A stretch of DNA of 64,000 nucleotides from Calothrix anomala FACHB-343 (lineage in GTDB: Bacteria; Cyanobacteriota; Cyanobacteriia; Cyanobacteriales; Nostocaceae), in contig NZ_JACJQG010000052.1 of the NCBI RefSeq assembly GCF_014696435.1, forward strand, positions 1 to 64,000, given 5' to 3'. This document shows positions 12,017-54,885 of the stretch, in pieces. The position numbers and the translations under genes were made by a program. Each line of letters opens with the position of its first letter. Position 1 is the stretch's first letter. The notes beneath the pieces are model-generated. The model saw nothing but the letters and a program-made list of their open reading frames with translations. It did not search any database and was not told where the DNA came from.

Positions 12017-12418
12017 TTGTTTCAAAATGTTACTTTGTTCGGCGTACTGGCGATCGCTGTTGGTGCGATTCCTGGGGCTGTGAGTCGCTATTACCTAACT
12101 GAATTTTGTAAAAGGTCTTTAGGTACAAACTTTCCTTACGGCACTTTTATTATCAATTTCACTGGCTGTTTACTCATGGGCTTTTTCTTCACCTTATTTA
12201 AGGGAATTAAAGGCTTTCCACCAGAGATAGATTTGTTAGTTAGAACTGGTTTTTTAGGTTCTTATACAACCTTCTCAACTTACGGATACGATACATTGAC
12301 ATTGTGGCGCAATCATAAGCAGGGAGCCACTATTTTTTACTGGGTAGGCAGTGCGATTTTAGCAGTAGTTGGGATTATCGTAGGCACTAATTTAGCGCAG
12401 CTAATTCTGGGTTCCTAG
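12017..12418 (+). CDS. crcB: CrcB/Fluc fluoride channel subunit 1
   Basis: 133 residues starting at TTG 12017, supported by AAGGGGTG seven bases upstream. It shows the Fluc signatures GAIPGAVSRYYLTE, YGTFIINFTGCLLMGF and RTGFLGSYTTFSTYGYDT, and four predicted membrane helices. Fluc channels export toxic fluoride passively; many bacteria carry two homologous genes whose products form antiparallel dimers. The paralogue follows 66 bases downstream, so the two likely form an operon and a heterodimer. Confidence in family is high; the alternative of homodimers cannot be excluded. Confidence 0.92.
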   Translation: MFQNVTLFGVLAIAVGAIPGAVSRYYLTEFCKRSLGTNFPYGTFIINFTGCLLMGFFFTLFKGIKGFPPEIDLLVRTGFLGSYTTFSTYGYDTLTLWRNHKQGATIFYWVGSAILAVVGIIVGTNLAQLILGS

Positions 12419-12484
12419 CAATTCAACTGTATAAAATCACATAATTTATAGCAAATGAAGTAGATACCAGCAAATAATTTCATC

Positions 12485-12901
12485 ATGCAAAATACTTTTA
12501 TTCGCACTGTCATAGCGATAGCTTTAGGTGCAATGCCAGGGGCTGTAGGACGCTACTTGATCACTGAATTTACCAAAGCTACTTTTGGCAAAGATTTTCC
12601 TTATTATGGGACATTTTTTATTAATGTCACAGGCTGTTTTATTATTGCTTTGTTTTACACCCTAAACGAGCAAAAGTTTAAAAGCCTTGCACCTGAAATC
12701 CGGTTAGCGATCGCGACTGGTTTTTGTGGTGCTTATACAACATTTTCAACTTACGGATTAGAAACTTTCACCCAGATAGATAAAGGCAATACAACAGTAG
12801 CTTTAATCTATTGGTTAGGCAGTATGATAGTGGGAATGCTGGGTATTCAATTAGGTGTAACCTTAGGTAAGCTTAATTCTAAATCCAGCGTGGCTGAGTA
12901 A
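12485..12901 (+). CDS. crcB: CrcB/Fluc fluoride channel subunit 2
   Basis: 138 residues, ATG 12485. It has the same motifs as its neighbour: GAMPGAVGRYLITEF, YGTFFINVTGCF and ATGFCGAYTTFSTYGLET, with four hydrophobic helices. Homology to the upstream crcB is obvious throughout, which indicates tandem duplication. Paired subunits of opposite topology are known for fluoride channels. No terminator is obvious between the genes. It ends 286 bases before the pentapeptide-repeat gene. Confidence 0.92.
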   Translation: MQNTFIRTVIAIALGAMPGAVGRYLITEFTKATFGKDFPYYGTFFINVTGCFIIALFYTLNEQKFKSLAPEIRLAIATGFCGAYTTFSTYGLETFTQIDKGNTTVALIYWLGSMIVGMLGIQLGVTLGKLNSKSSVAE

Positions 12902-13187: not shown

Positions 13188-13943
13188 GTGCTAGTCAAAA
13201 TCACCCAGAAATTCAGCCAGACTTTTTGGGTATTACCAACCTGGGCGATCGCTCTTGGTGTAGTTTTAATCATGTCAGCAGTTTTTATCTTAGCTGATGA
13301 ACATTCTGCACTAGGAAAACTACTCGCTGGTGTTGAGGCTATTAGTATAGTTGTAGCGGTAGTTTTATATGTGAAAGAAACGCCCGATCGCAAAAAAGAA
13401 TCTTACTACCAAGCTTGGAGTACAGTTGATGCGGCTCACGGTGTCAAAGTGAGTTATGCCAGAATTATGGCGCTGCAAGATTTAAACGAAGATGGTGTTT
13501 CCCTGAGAGGTTTAGATGCTCCGGGTGCAGAATTAGTAGAGATTAATCTTCCCCGTGCTAATCTCAGTAGAGCTAATTTAATTGATAGCGATTTAACTAA
13601 TGCCAATCTCAGTCATACCAATTTAGATAATGCTAATCTTAGCCAATGTAAACTAATTAATGCAGATTTGAGTCATGCTAACTTAGGGTTTGCTCGCTTA
13701 AATCAAGCTAATCTAAGTAGTGCTAATTTGAGCGGTGCTAATTGAATTTGTGCAGAGTTAAGTCATGCTAACTTAAGCGGTGCTAATTTAAAAAATGCAA
13801 GTTTGAGTGGCGCTAATTTGCAGGGAGCTTACCTCACTGGCGCTAATCTTAAAAATGCTCAAGTCAGCAACTATGAACTGAGTAGTGCTTTTTTAGAAGA
13901 TGCTATCATGCCTGATGGTTCAAAATATCGCTCGCAAAGTTAA
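13188..13943 (+). pseudogene. Pentapeptide-repeat membrane protein interrupted by an in-frame TGA
   Basis: The reading frame encodes two hydrophobic helices (about residues 15-36 and 46-64), a soluble segment, and from about residue 110 pentapeptide repeats A(N/D)Lxx. At 13743-13745 the frame reads TGA where the repeat pattern demands a central Leu; TTA to TGA is one transversion. Past the stop, the same frame continues with SHANLSGANLKNASLSGANL-type repeats to TAA at 13941-13943. The intact protein would be 251 residues; the current product would be 185. Function of such proteins is unknown. The GTG at 13188 is a tentative start: AGGGG lies only two bases upstream and the frame stays open further upstream. 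A sequencing error would also explain the TGA. Confidence 0.8.
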
Positions 13944-14073: not shown

Positions 14074-17000
14074 ATGCGGGATAACCAGTCTCCTAATAAT
14101 CAACGCATTATCCATTTAACCGAAGTCTCTGCTACAGGTTTTCCTGCTGCCAATATTTATAAATATAAATGCCGCGTGCATCTGTTATCCAATGATGGTG
14201 AGATGTTGTTGCACAAGGATCTGTTTACGCGGATGCAGCCTAGCTGGTTGGTGGAGTTGAAGAATAAGGGTGACTGCACAATTTCCATAACATTCTGCTA
14301 CCGAGAAGGCGATATTACCAACCCTTGGCAAGATACAGGAACAGTTGTATTCGCGACACAGGACTATTTGCAGGTAGATGCTAACGCCGATCTAGAATTT
14401 CCGATTACAACCTGGAGTCAAGCACCACAGTTAAAGCTAAAAGTCAGACTAACCGAAAGCTGTAGTGAAGGTAGCAGCAGCACAGTTAATATATTTGGCA
14501 GACAAAATGGTTCTCGTTGGCTGCGTTCTCAAAATGGCGATCGCGCCAACGTTGAGGTTGAACTCCCCGAACTGATTGCCCTAACGCCACAGGAAGAAGT
14601 ATTGGTAAAAGACGTATGGGGAAAACTGCGATCGTGGAAAGAACTGCAGATGGAAAAGTTCTTTAAGCGTCTGTTGCTGGAAGAACCCGATTTAGAGTAT
14701 CTATTTGGCGAAGCACTCGACAGCATCACAGACTTCTTCTACGAATTGTTTGACTGCTGTGCCCATCAACTGCAACCAGAAACCCAGAATATTATCGCCG
14801 AACCCCTGACAGGTGTACTGCCAGAGCAAGAACATGGTTTTAAAACTGTTGAAGACTACGGCAAGTTTTTTGCAGATGTAGGAATGCGTCCTCATCACTG
14901 GCTAAAAGCCCGCCAGGTATGGATGTGGATGCTACCATCAATTCCCTACCTAGAAGAATACGATCGCGAAGATTTGGCAAAAGGGGTAAACTCTGCATTC
15001 TACAAATTTTTCAATACCCAGATAATTTTGCCGATGGTAGATGCGATTCGCCATTATGAAGCAGCTATACCACCCGAATTGTTTCTGAAAATGGCCGATT
15101 CTTGGCAAGTGATGAGCCAAAACAAGCAGCAAATGGGGATTGAATTTTATCAAATGCTGTTTGAGAAATATCCCTTTGTCCTACCAATATTTGGGCGGGC
15201 AGATATGGATTATCTTTCGCTGCACTTATTCCAAGCACTGGAATTTTTAGTTAATTGTCTCAAAACTGGTAGTATTGATGAGATGTTGCGAGAACTGCGC
15301 TTTTTGGGACAGGTACATGGTAGTGCTGATGTGCCCACCTGTGCTTATCCAGCAATTACAGAATGTATGATTGCCTTAATGGAAAGGCATATCCCAGATT
15401 TTACCGCAGAGGTACGCCAAGGATGGGTAACGTTGATAGAGCGAGTCATCAATGTTGTGAAACTGCCAAAGCTGAATGAAGAACGCTTGCTCAAAAAAGC
15501 CAAACAATTTATCGAGTTAATTGCCTCAGAGCAAGCCTGGGAAAGCGAAGATAAAGAACGACGATGGAAAGAAATTAAAGAAGAAGTCAAAGCCACAGGC
15601 ACTTATACTCACACCTATGAAGAATTAGCCTATGGTACCCAAGTAGCTTGGCGCAATGCGTCTAAATGTGTCGGGCGGATTGCCTGGAATAATATGGTAG
15701 TACGCGATCGCCGTCATGTTACCGACCCCGATGAAATGTTCCGGGAACTGCAAGAACATGTGCGCTTTGCTACTAACGGCGGTAATTTGCAAATTACCAT
15801 GACAGTCTTTCGTCCCAAGCAACCCAAAGAACGCTGGGGCCCCCGCATTTGGAATTCTCAACTATATCGCTATGCCGCTTATCAGCAACCAGATGGTAGT
15901 ATTTTAGGCGATCCTGCCAACTTAGACTTAACCAATGCCATCATCAAATTTGGTTGGCAACCCCCAGAAACACGCACAGCTTATGATATTTTGCCACTCG
16001 TGATTGAACCGGCTGGGCAGCAGCCGAAAATGTATCACTGGAAACGCGATGAAGTGTTGGAAGTGGAAATTGAGCATCCGACAATCCCAGAGTTCAAGTC
16101 ACTGGGGATGCGTTGGTATGCCATTCCCGCCATCAGCAACTTCTGCGTCCACATTGGCGGCATCAACTATGGTTGTATTCCCTTCAATGGCTGGTACATG
16201 GGCACAGAAATCATGCGAGATTTCTTGGACGAGTACCGCTATAACATGATGGAGGACATTGCCAAAGCCCTGAAATTAGATACTAGTTCCGAGCAAACCC
16301 TATGGCGCGATCGCGTCGCCTTGGAACTTAATATCGCTATCCTCCACTCTTTCCAAAAAGCGAAAGTCACAATGGTAGATCACCAAACCGCTTCGCGTCA
16401 GTTCTTAATTCACGACTTGCGCGAAAAGAAAGCCGGACGGGAGTGTCCTGGTGACTGGGGTTGGGTTGTCCCCGCCGTTGGTGGTAGTACCTGTCCGGTA
16501 TGGCATCATTCCATGCGCGACTTTTATCTAGAACCTGCCTATCATCATGCAGCCGATCGCTGGGCAGTAGAAGATGATATTAATTTAGAAAAATTCATTA
16601 CGGTTATTGATGAAACCGGGAATCAGCAAGACCGAATTCTGATCCTTTATGCTTCAGAAACCGGTACTGCCGAAGGATTTGCCCGCAAAGCCGCTAGACA
16701 ATTGCAACAATTCCGTCCCAAAGTCATGGCGCTGGATGAATATAGTCTTGATACCCTAGCGACAGAAAAGCTGGTATTAGTTGTGACATCAACCTTTGGC
16801 AACGGTGAAATACCAAGTAACGGCAAGCAGTTTCTCCAACGGCTCAAGCAAATGCCTGCTGGTTCCCTCAGTGGCTTAAACTATTCTGTTTTGGGGATTG
16901 GTAGCACTGTTTACGAACACTTTTGTGCAGCTGGCATAGCAGTTGATAAAGCACTTGCCAAAGCGGGAGCCAATTGTGTAGTACCTCTACACAAAGGCGA

Positions 17001-18486
17001 TGAAATTAAGGGACAAGCCGATACTTTCAAAGATTGGTTAGGACTGATTGCTCGCTTGTTAGGTGCAGATGAGACGGCTGGCAATACCACAAATGCCTCG
17101 ACTGTGAAACTAGCGGTAAAATTCTTGAGTGCAGCCGAGGCCGCAACCATTACCCCCGTAGCCGTCAGAGGCGATCGCAGTATTGAAGTCCCGTTAATTG
17201 CCAATGATGAATTGCTGCAAGAAGTAATACCTGGCAGCCGTTCCACACGCTATCTCGTATTTGATATTGCGGGGACAGATTTACAATACGAAACAGGCGA
17301 CCATGTTGCCGTACATCCTTGCAATCCGCTAGAACTGGTAAATCGCCTGTGTCAGCGCCTGAATGTTGCCCCTGATACATACTTTACTGCGGCATATACT
17401 AAAGCCGATGGCACAGCGACAGAAGACCAACCGCCTGTTGCCGTACCGATGACAGTCGGTCAGCTATTATCGGCAGAACTAGATTTAGCGTTACGGGAAC
17501 CGTTTAATGATTTACTCGCTTACTTGTATACATCTGCCCAAAATCCCCAAGACAAACAACGTTTAGAAACTTGGCTAGAAATTCTCCGCCAAGGAGAGGA
17601 TCATCCTGACAGTATCACGCTCAAGAAAACGATTACAGACAATTTCATGAGCGTTGTTGATTTATTTGCTGAATTCCCCTCTGCGCCCATCACCCTCGAA
17701 GCCTTACTGGAACTGTTACCGAAGCAAAAGCCACGCCTATACTCTATATCTTCTTGTCCCCTGCTGCATCCCCAAAAAATTCAAATTACAGTTGGCGTGT
17801 TGCAAATTCAAACTGATGCGGGGAAAGTACGTCAAGGGCTTTGCTCCAACTACCTCGCAGCCTTGCCCATTGGTGCAAAAGTGCGGATTGACGTTCGCAC
17901 CTCTGGCTTCCGTCCCCCAGCCGATCCTCAAGCACCGATGTTAATGGTAGGGCCTGGTACGGGAGTATCACCGCTGATTGCCTTCCTGCAGTACCGCGAA
18001 GCTTTACAGAACCAGGGAACACAGCTAGGTGAAGCTTGTCTGTACTTTGGCTGTCGCAACCAAAGCGATTTTCTCTATGGCGAACAACTGACAACCTGGC
18101 AAAATCGAGGAGTACTCACCGATTTACAGGTAGCTTTCTCTCGGTTAACCGAGAACAAAGTCTACGTGCAAACTTTAATGCAGGAAAACGCTGAAAGCCT
18201 TTGGCAATTACTCAGCCATCCTCAATGTCATTACTATGTCTGCGGTGATGCCAAGATGGCAGATGATGTATTTGAGGTGTTTTTAGCGATCGCCAAAAAG
18301 CAAGGCAAACTTAACCACATAGAAGCGGTACAATTCTTTGACCAGATGAAGCAAGAAAAACGCTTCCATACCGATGTGTGGGGCGTGCAGTTGAACTTTA
18401 AGCAAGCTATCCAACAGCTCCAAAAAGACAACTACTCCAAAGCAGAACTCTGGCTGAATCGCGTCAAAGATGCCGTTGATGCCTAA
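14074..18486 (+). CDS. Nitric oxide synthase with N-terminal globin domains and fused reductase
   Basis: 1470 residues. Residues 1-165 match nothing I recognise. Residues about 168-320 and 345-470 are two globin-like domains; the second has proximal His415 ([11 protein letters not shown]), while the first has Phe266 at the position where I expect the ligand. The NOS oxygenase spans about 480-840, with haem Cys532 in [11 protein letters not shown], the arginine-binding Glu712 in [11 protein letters not shown], and ECPGDWGW near the pterin/dimer region. A short linker leads to a flavodoxin-like FMN domain (YASETGT at 859-865), then FAD (R1221-LYS) and NADPH (GPGTGVSP from 1293) domains. The linker lacks a calmodulin-binding basic helix. 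Predicted reaction: L-arginine to citrulline plus NO, possibly with conversion of NO to nitrate by the globin. The architecture fits the globin-NOS known from Synechococcus sp. PCC 7335. It is monocistronic. Confidence 0.95.
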
Positions 18487-37483: not shown

Positions 37484-40400
37484 TTACTTAATCCCCAGAA
37501 TATCCTTAAGAAAATCTGCAACTGCATTTGCAGATTCTTTAGCAATGGCAATTATGTCGTCATATACATCTTTTTTCTCTGCATCCTCATGTCCTTTTAA
37601 ATTATTTGTATACTTTTCGTCAATTACCCCATAGTTTTCCAGCGATTGATATAATGGTAACTTTTGTTTTAGCTGATCTGGGTTAAATCCGATCAATATA
37701 TTTGGAAAGTAAGCGTCATATACAGCTTCTATAGCTTTTGATCTATTTGTAGTCGCTTCTTTTTTGGTTTTGTCGTTGTCTTTTTTAACTGTTTCAAGGT
37801 ATTGTGACCGCACTCGCCTACACCAATAAAACTTATCTGCGTGTCCTTGGGAACTATTAAACAAACTTTTGATATCCTTCTCTGTTAATCCTTTTAATTC
37901 CCCTCCCATCCAATTAATTTGACTTTGAACTTGCTCGTTACTTGCTTCTACTTTAAACCGCTCGCTCTTTGTCTCAATAGCAGCATCGAGGTTAAACACC
38001 ACATCTTTAGTTTGCAATTGTCTTTTCTTACGTAAATCAGCGACAAGTGCTTGACCCTCACCCTTGCCAGCCGTACTATTAAACGAAGCTTCTATAGTTT
38101 TTGCACCTTTGTTTACTCTGACAATAGTGTTTGGTTCAGGAAAATAAACAGTGAATGGGTTTATTTGTGCCATAGCTTGACGAATTGCCATATCAAGTTT
38201 ATTAGCAGCCACCGTCAATACATCTTGGGTTTGCCCGCCAGCAATCGGCAATCGAAACTCATATCCACCACTGACAATTGCAGGAGGAATACCGTCCTCC
38301 GAAGTATTGTCTTTTATAATCTTGTCGTACCGTGCAAATAAAGCATTAGCCATTTCTTCGACTGGAACTTCTCCTCCACCTTGTTTTTGACTGGAGGCTG
38401 GTTTTAGGCTAATTGCATCGGGATCGGCACTGAGTACATAGACTTCATTTCCTTTCTCTCTCAACTCTGAAACAAATTTTTCGGTGAATTTATGATTTTT
38501 AACTTGGTTGCGTATTAAATCATAAGGAATTATTGTTTTGAATGTTTGATTTTCATCCTTTATAACTTTTGCTTTTTCAGAATCATTTAGTTGGGCGTAT
38601 CCTGATTTTGCATCTTCAAAACTAACGTCCTGCCAATCTTCTTGTTTAATTTTCTGCCTCTTATTTTGTTTGGAATTAACTGTTTGTTTCTCCTCAGAGG
38701 GCTGCTGTAATTTTTCCCATTTAGCTGCCCGCCATGAGAACCCAAAGACACCCAACCGAAAAGTGTTGAATCCGTCAGTGGATACTTTTTCCTTAATATT
38801 ATTGGTACTATCTTCTCCACTAATGGACTGGTAGCCATTAACTCCAACAACAAGACCAAAACGGCGTTTTGCTTCCTCTGGCGACTTAAATCCTTCCCGG
38901 CTGTAAAGTTGAGCAATCTCTTTTGCTGATTTGTCTTTAGGAGTTGCTGGTACATTAGCTACGTAGCAAATTTCCTCTTCTTCTGGGACAGCATTACTGT
39001 TTTCAGATGCTTCTGCTATAGAATCCTTTAGCACTTCTCCTTTTTTATTTGCTTTAATCCTGTATTGTGGTTGCTCTCCTCTCTTGTTGACAGTTTCTTC
39101 TGTTTCTTCTTCTTCGTTTGGCCGGTCATGTCTTTTCCCTTTTGCTTTAGGATTAATTTCAGCCTCAATATGAGCAGTTGTTTTATCTACGGCATCTTTA
39201 TCAATGACAAGTTTGCAAGCAGTCATTTTATATTTAGTCTTGATTTTAGGTAGCTGCTTCTTGATATCTTTAAATGACAGTTTTTCATTTTGCATTAACT
39301 GTTCAGCTTCTGCTACAGCTAAATCAAGATCGTCTTGTTTTTGTTTATAAGTTCGCTCATCAGCTTTGCCAATCCCAAGCTTATCTTTGACTTTATTGCT
39401 AAACTTATCATATTTATCCTTAACGGCTTGCTTCTTGCCTTCAACCCAATTCTGAGCGGCTTCTTTTTTATCCTTAATCCACTGTTTACCTGCTTCCTTC
39501 TTATCCTCAACCCACTGCTTACCTGCTTTGTATTTCTCCTTGGCTGATTCTTTCCAAGATCCTAATTTTTTGCCAACTTTGCTATTTTTGAACTTGTTAC
39601 TTGCAGCTTCTTTTTTATCATTAACCCACTTTTCGGCTGCGGCTTTCTTATCTTCAACCCATTGCTCACCTGCGGCTTTCTTATCTTCAACCCACTGCTT
39701 ACCAGCTTGATATTTCTCCTTGGCTTTATCTTTAGCAGAGTTAAATTTCTTACCAAATTTACTCTTATTAAACTTATTACCAACAGCTTTAAACGCCTTC
39801 GATCCTTTATCAATAATCCAATCAACTGCTTTTTCCATTGGTTTGCGCAGTTTGCGGAAGATGGCTTGAATCTTACCTGCTATACCGCCCAAGCCTAATA
39901 AGCTAGCTAAGAAACTAATAACTACAGGTAAAGATTTGGCGAGAGCATTTTCTACACCTGCAATTGCTTGGTCAATTGCGCCACCTGCGATCGCGCCAAT
40001 TGCATCCAGTATCGCATTAATTAAATCTGCAATCTGCTGGGCGCGTTCAATAAAGAATTTGACTATCTCGTAAATTGTCTTGGCGGCTTTGATAAAGGCG
40101 GAAGCGGGTGTCAACAAACTCAGAACCCACTCAACCCCGGCTGTAATCACTTTTTCAATGATAAAGTTCTTGATGGGTTCAATAATTAAGGTGTTAAGGT
40201 CGCCAATTCTATCTTGGACAAACTGCCAAATTCCCGTTATACCTTCACTGGCTAAAATTTGAAATACCTCTACACTTTGTTCCATCCAACTAACTTTATC
40301 TTCACCCAGTCGTTTCACAGCTTGGCCGCGAATTACTTGATAAGTGAAGCCTGCAAGCTGCATAGCTAGGCTAAATATACCTTTAAGGTCAAAGTTTTCT

Positions 40401-42727
40401 GGCATTTCAATGCCTGCTTCTGCCATTGTGCCAGTTAGCCAGCCAATTAATCCTTGTTGCAGGTGCTTCCCGATATTCTTCATGAAGTTAAGGAAGCCTT
40501 GCTTCACCGCCTGAATTAAATTACCTAAGAAACCTATGGGATCTTTGAGAATTTGCCCAACTACACCAGCAACTCGTGCTAGAACTTCCAACAGCATTTT
40601 TGTCAATTCGATGATAGTCTTAATGACTCCCACCACTGCATCGAAGGCTTTTTGAACTAATCCTTTATTTGCCGCTTTCATCTCTTCAATGCGAGCATCC
40701 ACAGCGTCCAGATTTTCTTTATACTTCTGGGCTAGGGTGTCAATTAGCTCATCTTGTTTACTCTCAACCGTCTGCTCCAATTCGTCAAATTTGCTATCTA
40801 TGTCTGCGGCGGCTTCTTGACCAACTCCTTTCAAATCTTGGGGTAGTTGGTTAACATAATTTTGAATTTCCTGCTTACCATTGGTAATTTCGGCTTTGGC
40901 TTGGGTGATTCCTTGGCTGATGATGGCGACGACTTTGTTAATTACCCCATCCATTTGTTGGATGTAAAGCTGGCGACCTTCTTGGTAAAAAGCGTTCACC
41001 TCGTTGGGCATACCCAGCAATTTGTCTACTAGCCATTTTCCAGGGCCCCAAAATCCACTGTAGCGATCGCTCTTATATTTGTCCATCTTCTGACCGACGT
41101 AATCCTCAAAGGCTTTCTTGGCTTCAGCCGCGCCTGCATCAAAGGCTTGGATTACTTGTCCGTCTAAATCGCCCAGGGTTTTCTCAACTTTGGCTTTGGT
41201 TTTATCAAAAATCTTATTAATATCACCAGCAATTTTCGCCCTGGCTTGCTCATCCTTACCCTTAGCCCCTACCTGCTTATCTGCTACCTGTCCCAAGTTT
41301 TGGCTACGGACACCATGCATGGCTTGCAGTTGCTGTTGAGCTGTAGCTGTGGCGGTCGCTTGGGCTGTGGCGAGGATTGTTTGCTCTTGCTGGCGATATT
41401 TGGGCGGTGCTTCTTGGGCGTTGGTTTGGGCGTCTTTTTTGGCGGTGAGTGCGCCTTGAAACTCCGGCTCGTTAGATTTTTCTAACTGCTCTTCTGTGAC
41501 ATCCGCCTCTTGCATTTGCTGGTCAAGTTTTTTACTCTCCGCTTGGATTGGCGCTTCCACTTCACCCTGTCCTTTAGATTTGGGTGCGGCTTTATCTGCA
41601 CCTACTCCCGTTGGCGGTGCGCCGGGTTCCGTTGGCGGTAGGGGGGTAACTTGTTTGGCTTCAATGCCACTGGTATCGGGCTTTTGTTTACTTTTCTCTT
41701 CTAAGGGGCCTTGAGAGTTTTTCTGTTCTTCCTTGACTTTGCCGCTCAAATCGCCTTTAACCGAGTCAAGTTTATTGTTATTTTTAAACTCGTCTGCTTC
41801 TTCTAAATTTTTAGGAGCCATATCGGCAATCCGCTCCATCAATTTAGCTTTGAAGGCGGCGGCGTCAAATCCTGGGGTGGGAGCCTGTCCCATTTCGCCT
41901 ACATGATTGGCTTGGGCTTTGCTGTCTACTTCATTAGTAGGCGCAACCGCCGCAGCTTGGGCGGACTGAGCTTTGCTGGCGGCGGTGGGGTGTTGTTTTT
42001 GTTGTCCGGCAACTTGTTTGGTATTACTAACTACCGCTTGAAATGCGGGGTCATTGTCTGGAGAAACGGGAGCTTTTTCACCTTCACCAGGAACATTGGC
42101 TAATTTATCAGTTGTATTAGCTACATTAGCCCCTGGTAATTCCCCAGAGTTGTTACCTTTGCCTTGATTAGCTGGGATATCTTGTGGCTGAGGCTGTTTC
42201 TGGGCTGACAAGGGATTTCCCGCAGCTTCCACAGCCGTATCTACCTTTTTTGTCGGCGGTGGATTTGCGCCCCCATCACCGTTATTGGGTGGGGGAGAGG
42301 CGCTAGCTTGTTCTTTAATCGGCGGTTGCTGATTTTTTTGTTCTTTATTTTCGGTTTCTGGTTTGGATTCTCCCACCTCTGAGTTTTTTGGCTGATTTTC
42401 CTCAGTGGGTTTGGGGGAATTCTCCCGGCGTTGAATTGTTGGGAGTTTGTTTTCCTTGGGGGTAACGTGGAGAGATTTTGGCTGGAGTGGTTTTGACTCC
42501 TGGGGTTGTAATTCCTTAGCTGGCTCAGTTTCCGGTTGGGCTTGCGGACGCAACAATGATATACGACTAATATCATGTCCCGGAGGCTGATTCAGGGGTT
42601 GCAATAAAGAAACTGCCGGGGGAGAAGTTTGAGATGTGTTTAAACCAAAGCCACGTATCGGGTTTTTCAGAGTGGGGACAGAGAAACCTGTAGTAGTTTT
42701 TTTATGCCGGCTTACCTGTTCTCTCAT
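37484..42727 (-). CDS. Giant low-complexity/coiled protein resembling contractile-injection-system-associated proteins
   Basis: 1747 residues from ATG 42727, which is preceded by CAGGAG six bases upstream; the in-frame TTG at 42751 was rejected. The N-terminus (FSVPTLKNPIRGFGLNTS) resembles the leader of cyanobacterial proteins linked to extracellular contractile injection systems (recalled resemblance). Residues about 25-400 are Pro/Gln/Lys-rich disorder. About 440-680 are coiled-coil. About 680-965 are hydrophobic amphipathic helices (VLARVAGVVGQILKDPIGFL, VISFLASLLGLGGIAGKIQA). About 980-1120 hold 11-residue repeats such as KQWVEDKKEAG. A globular C-terminal region of about 450 residues is unrecognised. 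There is no DUF4157 HExxH motif and no structural injection-system gene nearby. It could be an effector, tape-measure-like or polymorphic toxin-like protein. Confidence 0.7.
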   Translation of the reverse strand: MREQVSRHKKTTTGFSVPTLKNPIRGFGLNTSQTSPPAVSLLQPLNQPPGHDISRISLLRPQAQPETEPAKELQPQESKPLQPKSLHVTPKENKLPTIQRRENSPKPTEENQPKNSEVGESKPETENKEQKNQQPPIKEQASASPPPNNGDGGANPPPTKKVDTAVEAAGNPLSAQKQPQPQDIPANQGKGNNSGELPGANVANTTDKLANVPGEGEKAPVSPDNDPAFQAVVSNTKQVAGQQKQHPTAASKAQSAQAAAVAPTNEVDSKAQANHVGEMGQAPTPGFDAAAFKAKLMERIADMAPKNLEEADEFKNNNKLDSVKGDLSGKVKEEQKNSQGPLEEKSKQKPDTSGIEAKQVTPLPPTEPGAPPTGVGADKAAPKSKGQGEVEAPIQAESKKLDQQMQEADVTEEQLEKSNEPEFQGALTAKKDAQTNAQEAPPKYRQQEQTILATAQATATATAQQQLQAMHGVRSQNLGQVADKQVGAKGKDEQARAKIAGDINKIFDKTKAKVEKTLGDLDGQVIQAFDAGAAEAKKAFEDYVGQKMDKYKSDRYSGFWGPGKWLVDKLLGMPNEVNAFYQEGRQLYIQQMDGVINKVVAIISQGITQAKAEITNGKQEIQNYVNQLPQDLKGVGQEAAADIDSKFDELEQTVESKQDELIDTLAQKYKENLDAVDARIEEMKAANKGLVQKAFDAVVGVIKTIIELTKMLLEVLARVAGVVGQILKDPIGFLGNLIQAVKQGFLNFMKNIGKHLQQGLIGWLTGTMAEAGIEMPENFDLKGIFSLAMQLAGFTYQVIRGQAVKRLGEDKVSWMEQSVEVFQILASEGITGIWQFVQDRIGDLNTLIIEPIKNFIIEKVITAGVEWVLSLLTPASAFIKAAKTIYEIVKFFIERAQQIADLINAILDAIGAIAGGAIDQAIAGVENALAKSLPVVISFLASLLGLGGIAGKIQAIFRKLRKPMEKAVDWIIDKGSKAFKAVGNKFNKSKFGKKFNSAKDKAKEKYQAGKQWVEDKKAAGEQWVEDKKAAAEKWVNDKKEAASNKFKNSKVGKKLGSWKESAKEKYKAGKQWVEDKKEAGKQWIKDKKEAAQNWVEGKKQAVKDKYDKFSNKVKDKLGIGKADERTYKQKQDDLDLAVAEAEQLMQNEKLSFKDIKKQLPKIKTKYKMTACKLVIDKDAVDKTTAHIEAEINPKAKGKRHDRPNEEEETEETVNKRGEQPQYRIKANKKGEVLKDSIAEASENSNAVPEEEEICYVANVPATPKDKSAKEIAQLYSREGFKSPEEAKRRFGLVVGVNGYQSISGEDSTNNIKEKVSTDGFNTFRLGVFGFSWRAAKWEKLQQPSEEKQTVNSKQNKRQKIKQEDWQDVSFEDAKSGYAQLNDSEKAKVIKDENQTFKTIIPYDLIRNQVKNHKFTEKFVSELREKGNEVYVLSADPDAISLKPASSQKQGGGEVPVEEMANALFARYDKIIKDNTSEDGIPPAIVSGGYEFRLPIAGGQTQDVLTVAANKLDMAIRQAMAQINPFTVYFPEPNTIVRVNKGAKTIEASFNSTAGKGEGQALVADLRKKRQLQTKDVVFNLDAAIETKSERFKVEASNEQVQSQINWMGGELKGLTEKDIKSLFNSSQGHADKFYWCRRVRSQYLETVKKDNDKTKKEATTNRSKAIEAVYDAYFPNILIGFNPDQLKQKLPLYQSLENYGVIDEKYTNNLKGHEDAEKKDVYDDIIAIAKESANAVADFLKDILGIK

Positions 42728-42849
42728 AGTCTGCTCCTGAAGCCCCAGCAATTAAGTTATTGATATTGCACCAGTTCAAATATCTCAGGATACAGCGATC
42801 GCATTTATCAAGCAATTAGCCCAAAGTCTAATAGTTAGATTTCGATAAT

Positions 42850-53524: not shown

Positions 53525-54885
53525 CGGAATTCCCCACCTTCAGCGATAGCAAGGTGGGGTGGTTGAGAAGTTGTCAATTATTTTATTTTGCTACTTTACT
53601 AGAAAATGTACTTCATAGTAAAATACATAAATAAAGGAGGTGATGTTGAGTGTTGCATAAAGCTGTTCAAGTTCGTTTATATCCAAACAAAGAACAACAA
53701 ATACTATTAGCACAAACATTCGGATGTGCAAGATGGTGGTGGAACTTCGCTCTAAATAAGTCAATTGAGATTTATAAAGAAACAGGAAAAGGACTTGGGC
53801 AAGTAGCACTCAACGCACTTCTACCAAAACTCAAAAAAGCGGAAGAGACAAAGTGGTTAGCTGATTGTTATAGCCAAGTTTTACAAGCTACTACACTCAA
53901 CTTAACTACTGCGTACAAAAACTTTTTTGAAAAGCGTGCTGGATTTCCTAAGTTCAAATCCAAGCATGGAAAACAGTCTGTTCATTATCCTCAAAACGTC
54001 AAAATTGTAGACGGGAATGTAAAACTTCCCGGCAATATTGGAATAGTTAGAGCCAAAATACATAGACCGATTGAAGGGAAAATAAAGACTTGTACCGTCG
54101 TTAAAACTCCGTCAGACAAATACTTTGCATCTATTCTGACTGAAGTAGAAACAGATAAACTTGCTGTGATAGAGGGGAAGATTTATGGCGTTGATTTAGG
54201 ATTAAAACACTTTGCTGTTGTAAGTGACGGCAAAAAAGTTTCTAAATATGACAATCCTAAACACATTGCCAAACATGAGAAAAATCTTAAACGCAAGCAA
54301 CAAAAACTAGCACGTAAAGTAAAAGGAAGTAAGTCAAGGAATAAATATAGAAGACTAGTTGCCAAAGTGTACGAACGAGTTAGTAACTCACGGCAAGATT
54401 TTCTACATAAACTTAGTTACAAGTTGGTCAGCGATAGCCAAGCTGTCATAGTAGAAAATCTTCATATCAAAGGTATGGTTCGTAACCACAATTTGGCGAA
54501 AGCAATTATGAATTGTGGATGGGGAATGTTCACTAACTTTCTATCTTATAAGCTAGAACGCAAAGGTGGAAAGCTAGTAGAAATTGATAGATGGTTCCCC
54601 AGTTCCAAGCTTTGTTCTAATTGTTTCTATCAAGTCAGCGAAATTCCACTAGATGTGAGGGAATGGACTTGTCCTAACTGTGGCACTCATCATGACAGGG
54701 ATGGGAACGCAGCGATAAATATTAGAGCAGAAGGAATCAGAATGCTAAAGGCGGATGGTTCAACCGTCTCTGCTGTAGGAGGAGAAGTAAGACCGAAGCT
54801 TGGGCGAAAGTCTAAACTAAGGCATTCTCCTGTGAGTACAGAAGCCCCACCAAGAGCCGAAGGCCGGGTGGGGTAGTTCACGTGA
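53525..54885 (+). mobile_element. IS200/IS605-family element with tnpB only
   Basis: A tnpB gene is flanked by subterminal hairpins built on CCCCACC: 53532-53559 (CCCCACCTT/AAGGTGGGG, 10-base loop) and 54845-54873 (CCCCACC/GGTGGGG) overlapping the end of tnpB. No tnpA is present, as in IS1341-like elements. Exact ends are not determined. The 3' hairpin region is where an omega RNA is expected. Confidence 0.75.
53650..54876 (+). CDS. tnpB: RNA-guided endonuclease TnpB (IS605 OrfB family)
   Basis: 408 residues from GTG 53650, with a perfect AAAGGAGGTGA seven bases upstream. The N-terminus is the helix-turn-helix and RNA-binding part (RLYPNKEQQILLAQTFGCARWWWN). The RuvC active site is complete: D182 in YGVDLGLKHFAV, E269 in VIVENLHIKG and D349/D351 in HHDRDGNAAINI. 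A four-cysteine zinc ribbon (CSNC ... CPNC) lies between motifs II and III. TnpB is the ancestor of Cas12 and uses an RNA from the element's 3' end to cut DNA. This copy looks intact. The nearby gaps show an AT-rich promoter at 53575-53630. Confidence 0.93.
   Translation: MLHKAVQVRLYPNKEQQILLAQTFGCARWWWNFALNKSIEIYKETGKGLGQVALNALLPKLKKAEETKWLADCYSQVLQATTLNLTTAYKNFFEKRAGFPKFKSKHGKQSVHYPQNVKIVDGNVKLPGNIGIVRAKIHRPIEGKIKTCTVVKTPSDKYFASILTEVETDKLAVIEGKIYGVDLGLKHFAVVSDGKKVSKYDNPKHIAKHEKNLKRKQQKLARKVKGSKSRNKYRRLVAKVYERVSNSRQDFLHKLSYKLVSDSQAVIVENLHIKGMVRNHNLAKAIMNCGWGMFTNFLSYKLERKGGKLVEIDRWFPSSKLCSNCFYQVSEIPLDVREWTCPNCGTHHDRDGNAAINIRAEGIRMLKADGSTVSAVGGEVRPKLGRKSKLRHSPVSTEAPPRAEGRVG

What the first reader, a model, noticed from the sequence alone, without database searches (positions are those of the whole stretch)
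14074..18486. Globin-fused nitric oxide synthase with complete reductase in a Nostocales-type cyanobacterium
One 1470-residue frame encodes globin-like, NOS oxygenase (Cys532, Glu712), FMN, FAD and NADPH modules. Full NOS with a reductase is rare in bacteria, and globin fusions are reported from few cyanobacteria such as Synechococcus sp. PCC 7335. The globin may oxidise the NO to nitrate, giving arginine-derived nitrate.
Basis: partly seen in the sequence, partly recalled or inferred. Interest (0 to 1): 0.85.

Follow-up and report, generated by a model that had tools for sequence, protein, structure and literature searches.

The report
Cyanobacterial NO synthase with fused globin
This gene encodes a known type of cyanobacterial enzyme expected to make nitric oxide from arginine and to oxidise it on to nitrate in the same molecule; it is a new copy of a known kind, and its relatives suggest that the one copy studied so far is unusual in its calcium switch.

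Summary
Window 14074-18486 (+) is one intact 1470-codon gene, the only NO synthase found in its 9.24-Mb Nostocaceae genome. It aligns almost end to end with syNOS of Synechococcus PCC 7335 (2197 bits; 63.5% identity), whose cryo-EM structure appeared in 2026 (PMC12922734). Haem Cys532, arginine Glu712 and globin His415 are in place; all folded domains show purifying selection. It is a new member of a known kind: globin-NOS was described in cyanobacteria in 2018, and 24 of 218 surveyed Nostocaceae genomes carry a complete six-domain copy. New material comes from 41 aligned relatives: syNOS lacks five C2 acidic residues that most others, including this one, have, and two published syNOS contacts are absent here. 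Some relatives carry an EF-hand pair inserted in a globin that has lost its haem ligand; others a fused carbonic anhydrase. The mechanism (NO made, then oxidised to nitrate, with a C2 switch) is inferred from syNOS. Structure prediction could not be run.

The parts
14074..18486 (+). six-domain nitric oxide synthase / putative NO dioxygenase gene (1470 aa)
14074..14454 (+). C2 domain (residues 1-127); includes loop 77-87 (nt 14302-14334) with Asp80 and Asp87
   Evidence: profile match to syNOS C2; acidic columns
14455..14586 (+). linker L1 (residues 128-171), fast-evolving (dN/dS 0.43 against L055)
14587..15069 (+). pseudoglobin (residues 172-332)
   Evidence: 65% identity to syNOS pseudoglobin
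15070..15471 (+). haem globin / NO dioxygenase domain (residues 333-466); Tyr359 (taken as B10 by my own alignment reading), Phe373 CD1, His415 F8 (nt 15316-15318)
15472..16605 (+). NOS oxygenase (residues 467-844); haem ligand Cys532 (nt 15667-15669), Trp707, Tyr708, arginine-binding Glu712 (nt 16207-16209), Ile687
16636..17058 (+). FMN flavodoxin domain (residues 855-995)
17107..18378 (+). FAD / NADPH reductase domain (residues 1012-1435)
18379..18483 (+). C-terminal tail (residues 1436-1470), Trp1436, Gln1450 where syNOS has Glu1454
13188..13943 (+). upstream pentapeptide-repeat gene, interrupted by an in-frame stop at 13743-13745; a globin-less relative of the two-globin pentapeptide gene next to NOS in the sister genome. 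Neighbour, not shown to belong to the NOS system

Best explanation
A homodimeric, Ca2+-responsive NO synthase / NO dioxygenase of the syNOS type. Proposed cycle: NADPH reduces FAD, then FMN; in the Ca2+-bound state the FMN domain reduces the oxygenase haem of the partner subunit, which converts L-arginine to citrulline and NO with a reduced pterin. In the Ca2+-poor state the FAD domain reduces the globin haem, and its oxy form turns NO into nitrate. The C2 domain is the switch: it covers either the oxygenase docking site or the mouth of the globin haem. Shown here: six domains by homology, catalytic and haem residues, purifying selection. Inferred from syNOS: the activities, the dimer, the electron routes and the switch. 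Inferred from sequence only: that the C2 acids (Asp80, Asp87 and others) give this enzyme a more canonical Ca2+ site than syNOS has.
For: Near end-to-end homology to syNOS, which has full-length solved structures. Cys532, Trp707, Tyr708 and Glu712 conserved 41 of 41; globin Phe373 41 of 41; globin Tyr359 and His415 37 of 41. C2 basic patch Lys30 (Lys in 36 of the 39 with a residue), Lys32 (39 of 39) and Arg77 (41 of 41) kept; in syNOS this patch contacts the reductase or the globin haem propionates (PMC12922734). C2-Oxy contact Arg53 (40 of 40) with Glu516 (41 of 41) kept. A C2 match is present at 36 of 36 loci retrieved with a pseudoglobin-globin query, a few of them broken or cut genes. dN/dS low in all folded domains. 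The NOS globin is the only PF00042 globin found in the genome. One H-NOX match, a possible NO sensor. One PTPS-family match, weak as evidence for pterin supply because the family also rings in 9 of 14 control genomes.
Against: No biochemistry, and no predicted structure could be obtained. C2 identity to syNOS is only 32%. Two contacts described for syNOS are not kept: Arg107 is Ala103 here (Arg in 23 of 41) and Glu1454 is Gln1450 (Glu in 1 of 41, syNOS itself), so the switch may be weaker or built differently. No NtcA-type box enrichment upstream in 40 loci (4 against a shuffled mean of 5.7). No family-wide gene neighbourhood. The pterin source was not established.
Confidence: 0.88

Rival explanations
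1. The main product is NO as a signal (for example for the H-NOX protein of the same genome), and the globin only limits spill-over; arginine-to-nitrate recycling is not the point.
For: H-NOX match present. In four relatives the globin has lost His F8 and Tyr B10 and carries an EF-hand pair, so the enzyme can be kept without its own NO dioxygenase. Three genomes with an EF-type NOS gene (G700, G354, G810) show no PF00042 match at all; truncated globins (another family) were not searched.
Against: 37 of 41 family members keep the globin haem residues, and globin dN/dS is the lowest of all domains in the window-L055 pair (0.033).
Confidence: 0.4
2. The enzyme is mainly a nitrogen-salvage route (arginine to citrulline plus nitrate), as proposed for PCC 7335.
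For: PMC6104048 abstract: syNOS lets E. coli grow on arginine as sole N source. The globin is conserved.
Against: No NtcA-box enrichment and no conserved neighbouring nitrogen genes recognised; patchy presence: 4 of the 9 same-genus genomes have a NOS match.
Confidence: 0.35
3. The gene is a decaying or uncoupled NOS.
For: Partial and broken NOS copies are frequent in relatives, and the adjacent pentapeptide gene is interrupted.
Against: Full open frame, complete cofactor motifs, dN/dS 0.03-0.13 in all folded domains against L055.
Confidence: 0.03

Closest known systems
syNOS of Synechococcus sp. PCC 7335 (PDB 9q05, 9q06, 9q0x, 9q0y, 9q15)
   Same: six domains in the same order; haem, arginine and globin residues; C2 basic patch; Arg57-Glu523 contact; C-terminal tail
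   Different: 63.5% identity overall, C2 only 32%; Arg107 is Ala and Glu1454 is Gln; the window C2 has Asp49, Asp67, Asp80, Glu108 and Glu132 where syNOS has Gln, Asn, Gly, Ser and Ser, and Asp87 where syNOS has Glu
Animal NOS (nNOS, eNOS, iNOS)
   Same: oxygenase plus diflavin reductase in one chain (nNOS is the next PDB match, 613 bits)
   Different: no calmodulin-binding linker (about 10 residues between Oxy and Fld), no Cys-X4-Cys before the haem Cys, extra C2, pseudoglobin and globin
Bacterial flavohaemoglobin (Hmp)
   Same: a globin reduced by an FAD/NADPH module to turn NO into nitrate (shown for syNOS in PMC12922734)
   Different: here the two modules are separated by the NOS oxygenase and an FMN domain
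Sorangium-type NOS
   Same: NOS with its own reductase
   Different: N-terminal [2Fe-2S]/FAD/NAD reductase and C-terminal oxygenase (PMC3701330). That order also occurs in cyanobacteria, with EF-hands or cNMP domains, but it is not the window gene

Membership tests
syNOS-type six-domain cyanobacterial NOS | C2-pGlb-Glb-Oxy-Fld-FNR order in one chain | tested here: met
   by homology
syNOS-type six-domain cyanobacterial NOS | NOS haem Cys, substrate Trp/Tyr/Glu | tested here: met
   Cys532, Trp707, Tyr708, Glu712
syNOS-type six-domain cyanobacterial NOS | haem-binding globin with Phe CD1 and His F8 | tested here: met
   residues present: Phe373, His415 (numbering from PMC6104048); haem binding itself not testable
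syNOS-type six-domain cyanobacterial NOS | pseudoglobin does not bind haem | tested here: inconclusive
   65% identical to syNOS pseudoglobin; absence of an F8 His was only read by eye, no structure obtained
syNOS-type six-domain cyanobacterial NOS | C2-Oxy contact Arg57-Glu523 | tested here: met
   Arg53, Glu516
syNOS-type six-domain cyanobacterial NOS | C2-Oxy contact Arg107-Glu568 and tail contact Lys987-Glu1454 (reported in syNOS; not family-defining, since relatives lack them too) | tested here: not met
   Ala103 and Gln1450; Arg107 kept in 23 of 41, Glu1454 in 1 of 41
syNOS-type six-domain cyanobacterial NOS | NO and nitrate production, Ca2+ dependence | not testable with these tools
   needs purified protein
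animal NOS | calmodulin-binding linker of about 30 residues | tested here: not met
   about 10 residues (845-854) between Oxy and Fld by the syNOS alignment
animal NOS | Zn-binding Cys-X4-Cys before the oxygenase core | tested here: not met
   read by eye in the translation: no Cys-X4-Cys between the globin and Cys532
Sorangium-type NOS | N-terminal [2Fe-2S]/FAD reductase, C-terminal oxygenase | tested here: not met
   no Fer2_BFD match; reductase is C-terminal

The most novel reading that the evidence does not exclude
Across cyanobacterial six-domain NOS the calcium module is the part that varies. The studied enzyme syNOS lacks C2 acids that most others, including this one, have, so the commoner switch may be a more canonical Ca2+-binding C2 whose loop (Asp80/Asp87) plugs the globin. 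Separately, one globin version carries an EF-hand pair where the haem-ligand helix should be and has moved between NOS lineages by recombination, turning a nitrate-making enzyme into a Ca2+-gated NO-releasing one.
Probability: 0.35. Interest if true: 0.68.

Novelty: new member of a known kind. Interest (0 to 1): 0.38.

Why it matters
In the papers I could read, syNOS is the member of this enzyme family studied in detail. The window gene and its relatives show which parts of the proposed calcium switch are general (C2 domain, basic patch, Arg57-Glu523) and which look particular to syNOS (Arg107 in about half the family, Glu1454 in syNOS alone, the missing C2 acids). They also supply natural variants, with the globin haem site lost and EF-hands gained or a carbonic anhydrase fused, with which to test whether the globin exists to make nitrate or to limit NO.

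Tried and rejected
NtcA-box control (GTAN8TAC from 400 bases before to 100 bases after the start of the open frame): 4 of 40 loci against a shuffled mean of 5.7; not supported. Conserved operon: groups of neighbours shared by at least four of 40 loci were one 14-locus group that holds a window ORF (I take it for the sensor-kinase ORF by eye), a 6-locus pentapeptide group and several groups confined largely to one clade; no family-wide partner. Phage carriage: viral-contig scan, 71 pattern matches, 0 relatives. The two-globin pentapeptide gene as a general NOS partner: relatives (many of them only part of the protein) occur in 61 of 210 Nostocaceae genomes; 16 of these 61 also have a NOS match, and the two are neighbours in 2 (the window's genome and G402), so a general link is rejected. 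Profile search of the C2 domain against PDB sequences: only syNOS. In one search (and the counts) one row, L074, was a wrong ORF; it was replaced and L142 was added, and residue counts in this report use the 41 rows. Left out of those 41 rows as broken, split or cut by a contig end: L056, L061, L098, L106, L109, L110.
Full report
WHAT IS THERE. The window holds one uninterrupted ATG-started frame at 14074-18486 (+), 1470 aa. Pfam finds a globin (357-461), NOS oxygenase (469-830), flavodoxin (857-988), FAD-binding (1054-1260) and NAD-binding (1291-1399) domain. It is the only PF02898 match in the 9.24-Mb genome. Against solved structures the best match is full-length syNOS of Synechococcus PCC 7335, 2197 bits over residues 11-1462; the next, nNOS, scores 613 bits. 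One fetched genome (G908, locus L111) carries what is evidently syNOS: it contains the 31-residue stretch I tested, gives 1468 residues from its first Met, and the residue numbers of two papers fall on the expected letters. Its numbering was used for mapping. Identity of the window protein to it: overall 63.5%, C2 32%, pseudoglobin 65%, globin 58%, oxygenase 75%, FMN domain 77%, FAD/NADPH domain 65%.

PMC12922734 (abstract, introduction, sections 10, 12, 14, 16, 17 read, further passages seen) describes syNOS as C2 - pseudoglobin - globin - oxygenase - flavodoxin - FNR. The window protein has the same six domains by homology. A profile of C2 relatives hits syNOS residues 9-134 with 162 bits and nothing else in the PDB sequence set up to E=10. 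At 36 of 36 named-genome loci found with a pseudoglobin-globin query a C2 match is present too; in a few of these the gene is split, cut or truncated.

IS IT FUNCTIONAL. In 41 six-domain proteins the haem Cys (window 532), Trp707, Tyr708 and Glu712 are invariant; Ile687 in 40 of 41; globin Phe373 41 of 41; globin Tyr359 and His415 37 of 41 (Cys, Phe and His numbering from PMC6104048 section 5; the B10 label for Tyr359 is my own reading). dN/dS against the same-genus copy L055: C2 0.13, L1 linker 0.43, pseudoglobin 0.07, globin 0.03, oxygenase 0.05, FMN domain 0.08, FNR 0.09; against L066 similar, with L1 0.76; in more distant pairs some values are saturated. The genome has no other PF00042 globin, one H-NOX match and one PTPS-family match; the last is weak evidence for pterin supply, since that family also rings in 9 of 14 control genomes.

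MECHANISM. Taken from syNOS (PMC12922734; the NO:nitrate ratio of about 1:3 is cited in passages of PMC7554344): NADPH-FAD-FMN electrons reduce the oxygenase haem across the dimer for NO synthesis; the FNR reduces the globin for NO-to-nitrate oxidation; Ca2+ is proposed to move the C2 domain from the oxygenase to the globin and so trade one activity for the other. For the window protein all of this is inference from homology. The C2 basic patch (Lys30, Lys32, Arg77) and the Arg53-Glu516 contact are kept. Arg107 (Ala103 here; Arg in 23 of 41) and Glu1454 (Gln1450 here; Glu in 1 of 41, syNOS itself) are not. So two contacts described for syNOS are not general.

THE C2 ACIDS. PMC12922734 says syNOS C2 lacks the typical Ca2+-binding Asp residues yet binds Ca2+ at 1.6 uM. 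In the family several acids are widespread: window Asp49 (Asp in 36 of the 40 with a residue), Asp67 (38 of 41), Asp80 (38 of 41), Asp87 (39 of 41), Glu108 (40 of 41), Glu132 (Glu in 35 of 41); syNOS has Gln53, Asn71, Gly84, Glu91, Ser112, Ser139, that is, five non-acidic and one Glu for Asp. Asp80 sits in the loop (syNOS 81-89) that the paper says reaches over the globin distal pocket. Whether syNOS lost these or others gained them is open: Gly at the Asp80 site also occurs in L108 and L104, the earliest branches under my imposed root. That these acids bind Ca2+ is my inference; no structure could be computed.

DISTRIBUTION. NOS-oxygenase matches: 50 of 218 Nostocaceae genomes, 42 of 388 in the order, 19 of 388 in the class (18 over the cut-off), 17 of 386 in the phylum (13 over the cut-off); these samples overlap. 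24 of the 218 Nostocaceae genomes, the window's own included, hold a six-domain gene in one frame, one of them EF-type. The rest are stand-alone oxygenases, Sorangium-like fusions, broken copies or fragments. PMC6104048 (section 5) in 2018 listed NOS in Nostocales and three other orders and described a cyanobacterial cluster with the complete globin-NOS. In the tree the window copy is sister to the same-genus copy L055 (91%), far from syNOS (quick tree).

VARIANTS IN RELATIVES. (a) EF-hand globin: in L067, L096, L099 and L100 about 60 residues with an EF-hand pair are inserted at the globin F-helix (Pfam EF-hand_7 8.9e-11 in L099, the one scanned; the other three by alignment); His F8 is lost and Tyr B10 is Phe. 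A fifth copy, L106, has the same enlarged globin but starts near a contig end. By globin sequence the four are one clade (SH-aLRT 100), but for Oxy-FNR one clade is rejected (p-AU 5e-8), which points to recombination of the globin module (the group was defined by the insert, before any tree). Caveat: a globin freed from haem binding may evolve fast and group artefactually on 134 columns; the pseudoglobin tree needs two changes. Of five genomes with this type, three show no PF00042 match at all (G700, G354, G810) and two do (G446, G793). (b) Carbonic anhydrase: L093, L101 and L103 have a C-terminal LCIB-type carbonic anhydrase (Pfam 4e-66 and 5e-67 for the two scanned; L103 by blastp). They sit in one 5-row clade with two members that lack it, so gain with losses or several gains are both possible. 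Beside the EF-type NOS of L099 lies an alpha carbonic anhydrase gene (PF00194, 1.9e-47). (c) Of six further proteins scanned, five are Sorangium-like; four of these have EF-hand matches (in L060 below Pfam's cut-off) and L112 has two cNMP-binding stretches instead; the [2Fe-2S] match is below the cut-off in L084 and L085. Sorangium-like NOS in two cyanobacteria was noted in 2013 (PMC3701330, part 1 of 2 read). My text searches listed no paper that I could recognise as describing (a) or (b); subscription papers and preprints are not covered.

GLOBIN GENES NEAR NOS. 5 of 80 NOS regions (L055, L088, L099, L107, L133) hold a separate globin gene within the fetched stretch of up to 20 kb, against 0.15 expected from 26 non-NOS globin loci in 34 genomes (Poisson 5e-7). 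The baseline was hand-counted, the samples overlap, the search profile was built from these very globins, and the pattern was seen before it was tested. The window's upstream gene (13188-13943) is a globin-less, stop-interrupted relative of the two-globin pentapeptide gene that neighbours the NOS in L055 (64% to its residues 406-595, 89% to 597-660); whether it is a remnant or a paralogue without globins is not settled.

VERDICT. New member of a known kind, correctly spotted. Its value is as part of a comparative set that tests the published syNOS switch.

Noticed in passing
   Followed up: yes
L093, L101, L103: Six-domain NOS with a C-terminal LCIB-type carbonic anhydrase, about 1730 aa; L097, a close relative of L103, lacks it.
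   Followed up: partly
L099:1055-4327: A globin ORF, a two-globin pentapeptide gene and an alpha carbonic anhydrase gene lie directly upstream of an EF-type NOS.
   Followed up: partly
L058, L060, L084, L085, L112: Sorangium-like NOS in cyanobacteria with N-terminal EF-hand matches or, in L112, two cNMP-binding stretches.
   Followed up: partly
L107:15272-17110: MscS-type channel protein with a C-terminal globin, near a six-domain NOS gene.
   Followed up: no
window 13188-13943: Pentapeptide-repeat gene with an in-frame stop at 13743-13745; globin-less relative of the two-globin pentapeptide gene beside NOS in the sister genome.
   Followed up: partly
G545:C1:8492213-8528515 (L060, L061): Two NOS genes of different type about 35 kb apart, one Sorangium-like and one diflavin type whose open frame lacks the C2-globin part and whose oxygenase match contains a stop codon.
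   Followed up: no
window 37484-42751 (-): 1755-aa Lys/Ala/Glu/Gln-rich protein with 33-base repeats and no Pfam match at 1e-4.
   Followed up: no
window 53650-54876 (+): TnpB-like gene (OrfB_IS605 and Cas12f1-like TNB matches).
   Followed up: no
window 12017-12901 (+): Two adjacent CrcB-family genes just upstream of the NOS region.
   Followed up: no
window, many sites: Short heptanucleotide tandem repeats, many of them between ORFs.
   Followed up: no
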